Source of the DNA: Lactobacillus sp.
GTDB lineage: Bacteria > Bacillota > Bacilli > Lactobacillales > Lactobacillaceae
NCBI GenBank assembly: GCA_003482405.1
Contig: DMZB01000110.1
Span: forward strand, 1-6,868
Length of the DNA: 6,868 bases
Direction of reading: 5' to 3'
This document shows, in pieces, positions 1,242 through 4,638 of the stretch (positions are counted from its first letter, which is position 1; each line of letters opens with the position of its first letter). The notes beneath the pieces were generated by a model, which worked only from the letters and a program-made list of their open reading frames with translations, was not told the DNA's origin and did no database searches. A program made the translations under genes and the position numbers.

Positions 1242-1267
1242 TAAATCAAGAGAGGGGGGTGAAATCA

Positions 1268-1711
1268 ATGAAAATTGAATTTGATATTCTCACAACTATT
1301 TTGGAACCGTTCATTACCATTCACGCTGCCAAGAAAACGCAACAGCTGGAGCAACTGGGAGACGAAATTCAACGATTAACCACTAATTTAACCCTAACAG
1401 GCTATCGTGAGGACACGCGGAAAGTACTCTCCGTCTTAGAAATCAACCGAATTCAGACAAATGGTAAACATGTTGTTTGCCAAACACTAGATGGTGCATT
1501 TGAATTACACCAACGCCTTTATGAACTCGCCGATACCCTACCGCATGATTTATTTATTCGTATATCAAACAGTGAAATCATCCGCATCGCATGGATCAAG
1601 GAATTTGCGCTAACACCCACAGGCATGTACAAGGTCATTCTCCGTGATGGCCAGCAAACGTACACGTCGCGGCGATATGCCCGTCAAATCAGAAAGGAGT
1701 TGCTCTCATGA
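1268..1711 (+). CDS. LytTR-family DNA-binding transcriptional regulator
   Basis: This 147-aa regulator has a short N-terminal segment (residues 1-50) without a receiver domain, followed by a LytTR DNA-binding domain (about 50-147). Typical LytTR features are FIRISNSEIIRIAWIKEF (96-113) and the strand-turn-strand GMYKVILRDGQQTY followed by SRRYARQIRKEL at the C-terminus. With no phosphoacceptor it is not a classical response regulator. A GTG at 1259 is in frame, but it is part of the G-rich Shine-Dalgarno (AGAGGGGGGTG); the ATG at 1268 has a 6-nt spacer and is preferred. It overlaps the DUF3021 gene by ATGA, so the two are translationally coupled. This matches the known LytTR regulatory systems, in which a membrane protein restrains the LytTR activator. 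Autoregulation is likely but inferred. Confidence 0.9.
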   Translation: MKIEFDILTTILEPFITIHAAKKTQQLEQLGDEIQRLTTNLTLTGYREDTRKVLSVLEINRIQTNGKHVVCQTLDGAFELHQRLYELADTLPHDLFIRISNSEIIRIAWIKEFALTPTGMYKVILRDGQQTYTSRRYARQIRKELLS

Positions 1712-2154
1712 AAAAAATCGTGCATTATCTTACTCAAGGTGCCACAATCGGCATTGCAGTCGGTTTCCTGATTAGTCTAGTCTTTTCATTTATTTATCAA
1801 AGTAAGGACTACGCCCCATCAGCACCGATCTTCATGGCTCACTTCTCGTCCTCAACAATTGCCACTGCAGTATCAGGTTTATTATGGGCACTAATTGGAT
1901 GTGTTTTTGGAGTATCATCATTAGTGTTTGAACAAGATCAGTGGAGCATTACCAAACAGACGGTGGTCCACTTTCTAATCACTTATATTGGTTTCACGCC
2001 ACTGGCCATTCTGTGCGGTTGGTTCCCACTGAATTTCTTCTGGCTACTCTTTTTCACCATTACCTTCATCATCATTTATGTGATTATTTGGGCCATCTCT
2101 ATGATTAGTGCACGAAGAGAAATTCAAGCCTTCAACGCCAAGTTACACGAATAA
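1708..2154 (+). CDS. DUF3021 family membrane protein, probable partner or inhibitor of the LytTR regulator
   Basis: This 148-aa protein has four predicted membrane helices, near residues 10-30, 50-73, 86-104 and 108-131. The EQDQWSITKQTVVHF segment (75-89) between helices 2 and 3 is the family signature, followed by a GWFPLNFF turn. The tail after residue 132 is short and charged. Translation starts inside the LytTR stop (ATGA overlap), with AAAGGAG (1693-1699) placed 8 nt before the ATG. DUF3021 genes usually sit directly downstream of a LytTR gene. By analogy to characterised LytTR systems the membrane protein probably sequesters the regulator until a membrane-related signal arrives. The signal is unknown. 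Confidence 0.88.
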   Translation: MKKIVHYLTQGATIGIAVGFLISLVFSFIYQSKDYAPSAPIFMAHFSSSTIATAVSGLLWALIGCVFGVSSLVFEQDQWSITKQTVVHFLITYIGFTPLAILCGWFPLNFFWLLFFTITFIIIYVIIWAISMISARREIQAFNAKLHE

Positions 2155-2211
2155 TGTTTTTGGTCCAGAATGCAATTTAAAAATCTAATGACATCCGGAG
2201 TTCACCACAGT

Positions 2212-2790
2212 ATGCAAAATATTGATTTAACCAACATCGTTCTCGCGATTTTCGTTTTATACCTCGTGTTGAAACGTCAACTGTCGCCTAGACGGATTCA
2301 ACTTAATTTAAATGTTTATTTGTTCCTGATTTTATTTGGCGCCGCCTCAGTTGGCGATGCAATTATGCACAATCAATTAGTCGTCACCTCTGGAATTTGG
2401 CTCTTTGTGCTAGGAGCGCTAATCAGTGCCGTGCTGTTTGGTTACCTTCGGACACTTTCCTATCAACTATGGGTTGCCGACGATGGTTCCGTCATGCGGC
2501 AAGGAACGTGGCTAACTATCGTACTATGGATTGTCGGTTTACTCATTCATGGCGTTGCAGACCTAGCTTGGCATGGAAGTAATGCAACAATCTTGCTATA
2601 TCTCGGTGTCACCCTATTAGTTCAACGAGGATTCGTTTGGCTTCGTGCAAAACGACTCTATCCTGAAGCCACGGCGAAAACGGCTGCCATGCATGAGCAA
2701 CGCCACGAGGATCATAATCAGCGTCACATCGAACGGGAAGAACGACGACAACAACGGCATGAGGATCATGCATCACGCCACCATAGATAG
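2212..2790 (+). CDS. CcdC/DUF1453-like membrane protein with histidine-rich C-terminal tail
   Basis: This 192-aa integral membrane protein has hydrophobic helices near residues 6-20, 33-52, 58-78, 100-116 and 124-142. An RQLSPRRIQ turn follows helix 1 and a VADDGSVMRQGTW segment lies between helices 3 and 4, both reminiscent of CcdC/DUF1453 proteins. The family call is tentative. The cytoplasmic-looking tail (160-192) is very polar and holds eight histidines, with RHEDH occurring twice (164-168 and 182-186). In-frame ATGs also occur at 2170 and 2188, but neither has a Shine-Dalgarno. The ATG at 2212 has GGAG at 2197-2200 with an 11-nt spacer and starts just before helix 1. If 2170 is used, 14 residues are added. 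The gene follows DUF3021 closely and ends before a shared terminator, so it belongs to the LytTR operon. Confidence 0.75.
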   Translation: MQNIDLTNIVLAIFVLYLVLKRQLSPRRIQLNLNVYLFLILFGAASVGDAIMHNQLVVTSGIWLFVLGALISAVLFGYLRTLSYQLWVADDGSVMRQGTWLTIVLWIVGLLIHGVADLAWHGSNATILLYLGVTLLVQRGFVWLRAKRLYPEATAKTAAMHEQRHEDHNQRHIEREERRQQRHEDHASRHHR

Positions 2791-2816: not shown

Positions 2817-2892
2817 AAAAACGCTCTTAATTATTGACCATTTAAAACTGGTATTGCCCAGTCCAAAACGTCAAATTTAAGAGCGTTTTTTT
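2817..2892. terminator. Bidirectional rho-independent terminator between convergent operons
   Basis: Arms AAAAACGCTCTTAA (2817-2830) and TTAAGAGCGTTTTT (2877-2890) are perfect complements. The plus strand continues to seven Ts (2886-2892), and the minus-strand copy ends in five Ts. It can therefore stop both the LytTR operon and the nreC-like gene. The 46-nt interval is not unstructured: TTGAC (2834-2838) pairs with GTCAA (2870-2874), and ACTGG (2847-2851) pairs with CCAGT (2858-2862). This gives a long, interrupted rod. Confidence 0.85.
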
Positions 2893-2924: not shown

Positions 2925-2940
2925 TGTTTCACATGAAACA
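2925..2940. promoter_or_regulatory. parS-like ParB-binding site candidate
   Basis: TGTTTCACATGAAACA differs at one base (position 9, A for G) from the bacterial parS consensus TGTTTCACGTGAAACA. The arms TGTTTCA and TGAAACA are perfect. It lies in the convergent intergenic region, two bases after the nreC-like stop codon, outside the terminator. A chromosome-segregation role is inferred from sequence only; the central mismatch may weaken binding. Confidence 0.5.
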
Positions 2941-2942
2941 TT

Positions 2943-3596
2943 TTAAAAATCAATCAAATGATGCTTTACCGCGTACCGTACCAAATCCACATGAGCATGA
3001 ATGTCCAATTTACGCATAATGTTTGCTTTATGTGCTTCAACCGTCTTTGTCGAAATAAACAGTTTGCCAGCAATTTCCTTATTTGAATAGCCTAAAGCAA
3101 CTAATGGCAACACTTCTCGTTCACGGTTTGACAGTCCTTGATAACTCCGTAACTCCACATCTGTATCATCGGGATTAATTTCATCTAGGTCACGAGTTGT
3201 CATTAAAATACTGTGATCAAGATACTTTTTACCGTTCATAATCGCGTTCAGTGCGTTGACAACCTCACTGTCAGGCGAACTTTTAAGCACATAGGCCATC
3301 GCACCGTTTTTGATTGCCTGAGTGATATAGACGCGTTCATCATGCATGGAAAGAATCACAATTTTGGTTCGTGGATAAGAATCATGCAGTCGCTTGGTGG
3401 TTACTAATCCGTTTTCACCAGGCGGCATGCTTAAATCCATGATCAAAATATCAATATCTCCTTCTTCAACGCGTAATGATGCCTCTGTACCAGTGGTCGC
3501 CTCACCAACTACCTTCAGACCGGGCTGCTGACCGATTAAATATTTCAATCCGGAGCGTACCACCGCGTGATCATCAGCAATTAAAACCCTAAGCAT
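2943..3596 (-). CDS. nreC: NreC-like response regulator (NarL/LuxR type)
   Basis: This 217-aa two-domain regulator has a receiver domain (residues 1-120) with acidic pocket D8/D9, phosphoacceptor D54, S83 and K105. The segment DLSMPPGENGL (54-64) closely resembles staphylococcal NreC. A LuxR-type helix-turn-helix occupies about 153-215 (LSNREREVLPL, YSNKEIAGKLFIS, KTVEAHKANIMRKL). When phosphorylated by the kinase encoded just upstream it should bind DNA and activate transcription. In staphylococci NreC turns on nitrate and nitrite reduction without oxygen. The ATG at 3596 lies inside the kinase gene, 8 bp before its end, so the pair is translationally coupled. All catalytic residues are intact. 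The target genes are not in this window, so the nitrate role is only by homology. Confidence 0.85.
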   Translation of the reverse strand: MLRVLIADDHAVVRSGLKYLIGQQPGLKVVGEATTGTEASLRVEEGDIDILIMDLSMPPGENGLVTTKRLHDSYPRTKIVILSMHDERVYITQAIKNGAMAYVLKSSPDSEVVNALNAIMNGKKYLDHSILMTTRDLDEINPDDTDVELRSYQGLSNREREVLPLVALGYSNKEIAGKLFISTKTVEAHKANIMRKLDIHAHVDLVRYAVKHHLIDF

Positions 3597-4638
3597 CCGG
3601 AAGACTTCCTTCCATAACTTTTACCGGAAACTTGACTGTTATTGTTGTCCCAACACCAATCTTAGATTCAATTTCAAAAACGCCGTTTAATGACTCAATT
3701 CGATCGGCCATGTCATGAAGGCCTAACGAGTGCCCGTTAAAGGACTGATGCTCAGTGACATTAAATCCGACACCATTGTCAACGATTTGAAGGGAGACAT
3801 GATTCTGATGTTCAACCAGCAGTAACAAAACCTCAGTGGCATCAGCATGTTTCAGCACGTTATTAATTGCTTCCTGAGCGATTCGATACAGTGTGTTCTG
3901 AACGGTTGGCGTTAAGTTTTGACCCTTGGCATTCCCAGCCACACTAATTTTAACGCCCGTAGCCGTTTCAATCCGTTCAGCCAAAGTTTTAAGTGCTTCA
4001 ACTAAACCAAACGTATCTAGCACTGAAGGTCTTACATTGAGTGCCATGTCCTTAACTTCTCGCAAAGTGTCACGCAATTGTGCTTCGATAACTGACGTTT
4101 GTTTGTGCATTGTTTCGGCGCAATCGCACGGCTCATTTAATTTACGAACGCCCATAATGGCCGCGTAAACACCTTGCGCAATGCTATCATGCAAGTCTGC
4201 CGAGATTGTCCGGCGCGTCTCTTCTTGTGCATCATTAATGGCACAATTTTGTTTCAAACGATCAGCAACAACATTAATTCGACCAATCGCACCATAGTTT
4301 TTAAGTGTTAAAGAAAAAGTGTTTGATTGCTTGTCCAACATCGTGTAAGTCATATAATAATTTTTCAACGGACTGTCGGTACATTGAGACAGCACGGGCA
4401 TCGATACATCTGTCATCGTATTCATTACCTGACAGTGCGGACAACAGCCTGTTGACTTTGATTGACGCTTCAAAGTGGCTTGCGCGATTTCAGCCAAATA
4501 TTGTGGTGAAAAGTTCAATTCTGTTTCTAATGACTGTGCTAAATCATTGCTTTCAATCAATTCATCATTTTGAAAAATAAGAATTGCGACTGGTGCTTGC
4601 TTAAAATACTGATTAATTAACTCATTTTTATGAGACAC
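3589..4638 (-). CDS. nreB: NreB-like soluble sensor histidine kinase with altered cysteine motif
   Basis: This 349-aa kinase has no membrane segments, so it should be cytoplasmic. A PAS-like N-terminus (about 1-120) holds cysteines at 65, 66, 69 and 86. A HisKA_3 domain follows, with ADLHDSIAQ around phospho-accepting H150 and the RPSVLDTFGL X-box (203-212). The HATPase domain has the N-box QEAINN (255-260), DNGVGF (287-292) and SLGLHDM (304-310). In staphylococcal NreB four cysteines in two CxxC pairs carry an oxygen-labile 4Fe-4S cluster. Here the second pair is reduced to one cysteine, while extra cysteines occur at 132, 171 and 173. The start is GTG (4636-4638), set by GAGGGGG (4646-4652) with a 7-nt spacer. 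A nearby ATG at 4654 is out of frame. It overlaps the regulator gene by 8 bp. I see no strong promoter directly upstream. Confidence 0.85.
   Translation of the reverse strand: MSHKNELINQYFKQAPVAILIFQNDELIESNDLAQSLETELNFSPQYLAEIAQATLKRQSKSTGCCPHCQVMNTMTDVSMPVLSQCTDSPLKNYYMTYTMLDKQSNTFSLTLKNYGAIGRINVVADRLKQNCAINDAQEETRRTISADLHDSIAQGVYAAIMGVRKLNEPCDCAETMHKQTSVIEAQLRDTLREVKDMALNVRPSVLDTFGLVEALKTLAERIETATGVKISVAGNAKGQNLTPTVQNTLYRIAQEAINNVLKHADATEVLLLLVEHQNHVSLQIVDNGVGFNVTEHQSFNGHSLGLHDMADRIESLNGVFEIESKIGVGTTITVKFPVKVMEGSLPDA

What the first reader, a model, noticed from the sequence alone, without database searches (positions are those of the whole stretch)
2925..2940. Near-perfect parS palindrome just past the nreC-like stop codon
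TGTTTCACATGAAACA matches 15 of 16 bases of the ParB-binding parS consensus TGTTTCACGTGAAACA and has perfect 7-base arms. It sits in a convergent intergenic region, separate from the terminator. If used, it would be a ParB loading or secondary site and would place this locus within the segregation region of the chromosome.
Basis: partly seen in the sequence, partly recalled or inferred. Interest (0 to 1): 0.7.

Follow-up and report, generated by a model that had tools for sequence, protein, structure and literature searches.

The report
Conserved origin-region ParB docking site
A 16-letter DNA palindrome just past a regulator gene in a Furfurilactobacillus-type bacterium is likely a docking site for the chromosome-segregation protein ParB: close matches cluster near the replication origin in a related species and a match is kept at this same spot in four relatives, so it is a well-supported but ordinary member of a known kind.

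Summary
TGTTTCACATGAAACA lies at 2925-2940, one base off the parS consensus, two bases past the nreC-like stop. The window's genome (an unnamed, 87.5% complete draft, same genus as Furfurilactobacillus milii) has 12 matches at <=1 mismatch (0.13 expected) and 17 at <=2 (2.4 expected; reversed control 0). In the relative G001, 18 of 19 such sites lie on one contig, -55 to +165 kb from dnaA. The nreC block sits 55-120 kb from dnaA in the four relatives that have it. All four keep a parS-like site past the nreC stop (2 mismatches in three, 3 in one), though the terminator sequence has turned over and the site lies 50 rather than 2 bases past the stop. Their versions do not fold into the RNA hairpin that the window's copy can form, which speaks for a DNA-protein site. 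The CA-centred variant recurs at other origin-region sites. Caveats: ParB binding is inferred; the only parB contig in the window's bin looks like a Lactiplantibacillus contaminant, so the host's own ParB is missing from the assembly, though five of five relatives have two ParB-family genes. Verdict: a genuine, ordinary parS; a new member of a known kind.

The parts
2925..2940 (.). parS-like palindrome TGTTTCACATGAAACA, predicted ParB nucleation site
   Evidence: 1 mismatch to the consensus; parS-like site kept past nreC in 4 of 4 relatives with a close NreC; CA/TG centre recurs elsewhere
2943..3596 (-).
   Evidence: 81% identical in 4 relatives
3589..4638 (-). NreB-like sensor histidine kinase (HisKA_3 + HATPase_c)
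2817..2892 (.). hairpin with A/T-tract-flanked arms, probable shared bidirectional terminator of the convergent genes; separate from the palindrome
   Evidence: sequence and fold of the 156-nt nreC 3' region, -43.5 kcal/mol, z -4.7; relatives have a different stem at this place (by eye)
2170..2790 (+). convergent gene, 206 aa, no Pfam family at E 0.001; 77% identical counterpart (166 aa aligned) at the same place in G001

Best explanation
The palindrome at 2925-2940 is likely a chromosomal parS site, one of 17 close matches in the window's draft genome, at which ParB would load onto DNA. Shown: the sequence match, the excess of such sites, their clustering around dnaA in G001, a kept match at this locus in four relatives, and two ParB-family genes in each of five relatives. 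Inferred: a ParB dimer binds both half-sites, closes as a CTP-dependent clamp and slides into flanking DNA, helping ParA and SMC to move and align the newly copied origin region. Its place between the nreC stop and the probable terminator would put the site in transcribed but non-coding DNA, where sequence is free to hold the motif.
For: 12 places at <=1 mismatch against 0.13 expected, 17 at <=2 against 2.4; reversed control 0 at <=2. G001: 18 of 19 sites at <=2 mismatches on the dnaA contig, -54.8 to +164.8 kb from dnaA. A parS-like site past nreC in 4 of 4 relatives with a close NreC, at 2, 2, 2 and 3 mismatches. In the 140 bases after each of 217 mechanical ORF ends (both strands, so one site can count twice) in G001's origin region, the best match is <=2 mismatches in 12, 4 in 1 and 5-9 in 204. 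9 of the draft's 17 sites project to within 100 bp of a <=2-mismatch site in G001 or G005, this one included. The letters 2, 7, 10 and 15, which separate parS from NBS, are of the parS type; among 46 sites of three genomes, picked at <=2 mismatches, letters 6 and 7 never vary. The CA/TG centre occurs in 8 of those 46 and in 6 of 7 sites of the family member G064. In G001, ParB aligns with R and G and Noc with Q, K, K and R at the residues that decide parS versus NBS (PMC7383237, passages read).
Against: No binding data. The host's own ParB is not in the assembly, because the only parB contig looks like a contaminant; with about 5% contamination a few of the 17 sites may be foreign too. The relatives' versions carry 2-3 mismatches, so the site may be weak or secondary. 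At <=3 mismatches the genome count (36) is only about three times the backwards control (13), so G002's 3-mismatch copy counts only because of its place. Nearness to oriC in the window's own genome is by synteny only. Outside the genus, none of the other 78 of the 80 NreC-like loci kept (533 relatives were found; the best 80 are kept) has a match at <=3 mismatches past the gene's end.
Confidence: 0.88

Rival explanations
1. A decaying or very weak parS: descended from a ParB site but no longer loaded to a useful degree; the other sites do the work.
For: One mismatch here and 2-3 in relatives; with about 17 sites in the genome any single one could be redundant.
Against: The intergenic DNA around it has turned over while a match was kept in the 5 genomes that have the locus, the window's included. 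The CA centre is common among other sites; the site 8 kb from dnaA has it in the window's genome and G001, where G005 has the perfect CG centre.
Confidence: 0.1
2. An RNA hairpin in the nreC 3' UTR (processing or stability element), with the resemblance to parS incidental.
For: The window's copy can form a 6-bp hairpin, -4.5 kcal/mol, just past the stop; 12 of 200 shuffles fold as well.
Against: The versions of all 4 relatives fold at 0 kcal/mol, yet keep most parS letters. The same motif recurs away from nreC in the origin region, inside ORFs too (7 of 18 in G001).
Confidence: 0.02
3. A binding site for another factor, such as Noc or a transcription regulator.
For: Noc sites (NBS) resemble parS and NBS-like places also occur in the origin region.
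Against: The four letters that separate parS from NBS (2, 7, 10, 15) are all of the parS type, and the site is not among the 12 NBS-like places listed for this genome. It lies between a stop codon and a probable terminator, unlike a usual operator; no promoter scan was run.
Confidence: 0.03
4. A chance palindrome.
For: AT-rich intergenic DNA readily gives palindromes.
Against: 0.0004 expected in the window at <=1 mismatch; a match kept at the locus in four other species-level genomes.
Confidence: 0.01

Closest known systems
Chromosomal parS sites of Firmicutes (Bacillus subtilis Spo0J/ParB type)
   Same: 16-bp palindrome of the same consensus, multiple copies, origin-proximal, partly between genes and partly inside ORFs
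   Different: One central base differs (CG to CA); 18 places over 220 kb in G001, more than the 10 reported as bound by Spo0J in B. subtilis (PMC7022226, passages) but within the 20-23 reported for Listeria innocua and Streptomyces coelicolor (PMC7333895, passages)
Noc-binding sites (NBS)
   Same: Related 16-bp palindrome read by a ParB paralogue; NBS-like places are also found in this origin region
   Different: NBS has A at letter 2 and C at letter 7; this site has G and A, the parS type (NBS consensus recalled)
parS(-1.6 deg) near comCDE of Streptococcus pneumoniae
   Same: A parS near a two-component regulatory operon
   Different: There, mutating the parS changed comCDE expression (review PMC7022226, passages; the original paper is not held); no effect on the nre genes has been tested, and here the site is at the 3' end of the operon

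Membership tests
chromosomal parS site | Match to the 16-bp parS consensus with both half-sites | tested here: met
   15 of 16, perfect 7-base arms
chromosomal parS site | parS-type rather than NBS-type letters at the specificity positions | tested here: met
   Letters 2, 7, 10, 15 are G, A, T, C; residue logic from PMC7383237 (passages); the mapping to letters is mine
chromosomal parS site | One of a set clustered near the replication origin | tested here: met
   18 of 19 sites in G001 within -55 to +165 kb of dnaA; 6 of 19, 8 of 20, 13 of 21 and 12 of 16 on the dnaA contig in G002-G005; for the window's own genome by synteny
chromosomal parS site | Conserved at the locus in relatives | tested here: met
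   4 of 4 relatives with a close NreC, 2-3 mismatches; 1 relative lacks the gene
chromosomal parS site | A cognate chromosomal ParB in the same genome | tested here: inconclusive
   Own bin: one ParB, on a contig that looks like Lactiplantibacillus; relatives: two ParB-family genes in 5 of 5
chromosomal parS site | ParB binds or loads there | not testable with these tools
   Needs ChIP-seq or a loading assay
Noc-binding site | A at letter 2 and C at letter 7 | tested here: not met
   The site has G and A; not among the 12 NBS-like places of this genome

The most novel reading that the evidence does not exclude
In Furfurilactobacillus nearly all strong ParB sites and strong Noc sites are packed and interleaved in one origin domain of about 280 kb, making it a joint segregation-and-division-control centromere; the nreC 3' site is one conserved ParB entry point of that domain, and ParB sliding from it brings the nre two-component operon under chromosome-segregation control.
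Probability: 0.15. Interest if true: 0.55.

Novelty: new member of a known kind. Interest (0 to 1): 0.3.

Why it matters
It ties a small unplaced contig of a draft genome, by synteny, to the origin domain. It also gives a case in which a parS match was kept through a 48-base shift and terminator turnover, which points to selection on the site and not on its surroundings, and it shows that the CA-centred form is a recurring variant in Lactobacillaceae that exact-consensus scans would miss. A search for Furfurilactobacillus together with ParB found no paper in the held library.

Tried and rejected
Chance match: rejected by expectation, reversed control and conservation. RNA hairpin: rejected because the four relatives' copies do not fold. 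Noc site: rejected on specificity letters. A wider nreC-parS link: none past the gene in the other 78 of 80 loci kept; 5 of the 78 have a 3-mismatch place elsewhere in the locus. Own parB as proof of function: withdrawn after C111 proved closest to Lactiplantibacillus. Literature: searches listed 1 and 3 papers, none about parS in Lactobacillaceae as far as titles and abstract starts show; none for 'Noc binding sites' with 'parS sites', 'origin' and 'Firmicutes'; the parS survey by Livny et al. and the pneumococcal paper are not held. One search listed 7 papers with the consensus; of these I looked only at passages of PMC7022226. Not resolved: C314 carries two sites at its very edge (positions 2 and 171), but its first gene maps in G001 to contig C21, where no site at <=2 mismatches is listed. 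C28:3498 has as its nearest partner in G001 a site 1.0 kb off that already pairs with C28:4504; C326 has only a 3-mismatch place 1.2 kb off in G005; C134 had no anchors. These may be chance.

Full report
Observation. The 16-mer TGTTTCACATGAAACA is at 2925-2940, one mismatch from the parS consensus, with perfect 7-base arms around a CA centre. It lies two bases past the stop codon of an NreC/NarL-type response regulator (2943-3596, - strand), itself downstream of an NreB-like kinase (3589-4638); the facing gene (2170-2790, + strand) has no Pfam family. A probable shared terminator hairpin (about 2817-2892) lies between the palindrome and the facing gene.

Whole-genome count. The window is one entire contig (C218, 6,868 bp) of a 347-contig, 87.5% complete unnamed draft with 5% contamination. 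The draft has 2 exact, 10 one-mismatch and 5 two-mismatch places; the pattern read backwards gives 0 at <=2. At <=3 it has 36 against 13 backwards. A first-order Markov model of the window expects 0.13 at <=1 and 2.4 at <=2 in 2.35 Mb. The five relatives of the genus have 19, 19, 20, 21 and 16 places at <=2, with backwards controls of 0, 0, 0, 2 and 1.

Origin placement. In G001, dnaA is at C11:171945 and 18 of 19 places lie on C11 at 117100-336744, that is -54.8 to +164.8 kb, with gaps of 0.5 to 26.4 kb. Of the 18, 11 lie between mechanical ORFs of at least 150 aa and 7 inside one. In the other relatives the dnaA contig holds 6 of 19 (G002), 8 of 20 (G003), 13 of 21 (G004) and 12 of 16 (G005); the remaining places lie on contigs whose position I did not work out. 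The site past nreC is 54.8, 54.7, 58.5 and 120.2 kb from dnaA in G001, G002, G003 and G004. Several contigs of the window's genome that bear sites map to the same region of G001 or G005. Of its 17 sites, 9 project to within 100 bp of a <=2-mismatch site in G001 or G005 (this one 45 bp off), 3 more to within 1.6 kb with anchors 2-2.8 kb away, 2 find no partner of their own, and 3 have no anchor.

Conservation at the locus. NreC is 81% identical in G001-G004, and all four carry a parS-like site 50 bases past its stop: TGTTACACGTGAAACC in G001, G003 and G004, and TGTTACACGTGGAACC (3 mismatches) in G002. G005 has no close NreC (best match E 4e-7, 28% identical) and no sufT-like protein. In the window's copy the site is 2 bases past the stop. 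A short upstream flank is shared (TTTAAAAATGTT in G001, G002 and G004, TTAAAAATGTT in G003, TTTTTAAAATGTT here), so a single 48-base deletion or insertion between stop and site is the simplest history (my reading; MAFFT itself did not align the sites with each other). The terminator stem has changed sequence (by eye). Thus a match was kept while its neighbourhood turned over. Among 217 mechanical ORF ends in G001's origin region, best matches are either <=2 mismatches (12) or >=4 (205).

DNA site, not RNA. The window copy can fold as a small hairpin (-4.5 kcal/mol; 12 of 200 shuffles fold as well), but the four relatives' copies fold at 0 kcal/mol.

Centre variant. The CA/TG centre occurs in 8 of 46 sites from three genomes (16 of G000, the window's left out, 18 of G001's C11 and 12 of G005's C1, all picked at <=2 mismatches), in 6 of the 7 sites of the family member G064, and in other genera. 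At the site 8 kb from dnaA, the window's genome and G001 have CA where G005 has CG, so the two centres interchange at one place.

The protein. All five relatives have two ParB-family genes. In G001 they flank a parA-like gene (the neighbours rsmG and ychF are named by eye). The first scores over the NCBIfam cut-off for Noc and matches solved nucleoid occlusion proteins best. G005 holds the same set at 82% (Noc), 97% (ParA) and 84% (ParB) identity. In G002-G004 I rely on equal lengths and spacing. At the residues that decide specificity (PMC7383237, passages), G001's ParB aligns with R and G and its Noc with Q, K, K and R (numbering by my alignment). In the window's own bin the only ParB-family gene is on C111. 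It matches Spo0J best among solved structures, but it is 91% identical to Lactiplantibacillus garii and 88% to L. plantarum (best 120 of 7,999 scored hits seen; identical unnamed copies sit on contigs of up to 3.27 Mb) against 67% to G001, and its ychF is 82% identical to G001 where G001 and G005 share 93%. I take C111 as contamination; the host's own locus is missing from the assembly.

Mechanism. From established knowledge of ParB (reviews PMC7333895 and PMC7022226, passages read), ParB nucleates at parS and spreads into flanking DNA and stimulates ParA; the need for CTP in spreading is from the title and abstract start of PMC7053999 in a search listing; the sliding clamp and SMC loading are recalled. 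That this site is used so is inferred. Effects on nre genes are untested: the review reports no change in genes near parS in B. subtilis without Spo0J, but an effect on comCDE, 5 kb from one parS, in S. pneumoniae (PMC7022226).

Wider domain. NBS-like places (<=2 mismatches) number 12, 14, 10, 13, 13 and 8 in G000-G005, with backwards controls of 0 or 1. In G001, 13 of 14 lie on C11 at 90019-368877, interleaved with the parS places; in G005, 6 of 8 lie on the dnaA contig. In S. aureus all but one of 41 Noc loci lie within 700 kb of the origin, and B. subtilis Noc sites are enriched over the origin-proximal two-thirds (PMC5540599, passages), so confinement here looks tighter; weaker Noc sites would escape this scan.

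Verdict. A real, conserved, origin-region parS with inferred ParB binding; a new member of a known kind, of modest interest.

Noticed in passing
G000:C111 (L187) 6805-9361: The only parA-parB-ychF contig in the window's bin is closest to Lactiplantibacillus (ParB 91% to L. garii), next to a gene with a primase C-terminal domain; probably a contaminant contig, so the bin lacks its own par locus.
   Followed up: yes
G001:C11:90019-368877; counts also in the other genus genomes: Noc-binding-site matches (TATTTCCCGGGAAATA, <=2 mismatches) are interleaved with the parS region around dnaA: 13 of 14 in G001, 6 of 8 on the dnaA contig in G005.
   Followed up: partly
G005:C1:16286-18506 against dnaA at C1:273326; G001:C24 against C11: The noc-parA-parB locus lies about 255 kb from dnaA in G005, outside the <=2-mismatch parS places of that contig (167-292 kb); in G001 it is on a different contig from dnaA and the parS sites.
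   Followed up: partly
G000:C314:2-17 and 171-186 (L174): An exact and a one-mismatch parS at the very edge of a contig whose first gene (pyruvate-oxidase-like by my reading) maps in G001 to a contig without listed sites; rearrangement, misassembly or species-specific sites.
   Followed up: partly
G064:C1:70559-138255: A Lactobacillaceae genome in which 6 of 7 parS matches at <=1 mismatch carry the same CA/TG centre as the window's site: the variant is the dominant form there.
   Followed up: no
G020, G057 (genus g16), G042: 19, 21 and 15 parS matches at <=1 mismatch, the highest counts among the 61 Lactobacillaceae genomes scanned.
   Followed up: no
window 1259-2154: A LytTR-domain regulator overlapping a DUF3021 membrane protein gene; a similar gene pair appears to lie on C314 (L174:3704-4566, by eye).
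   Followed up: no
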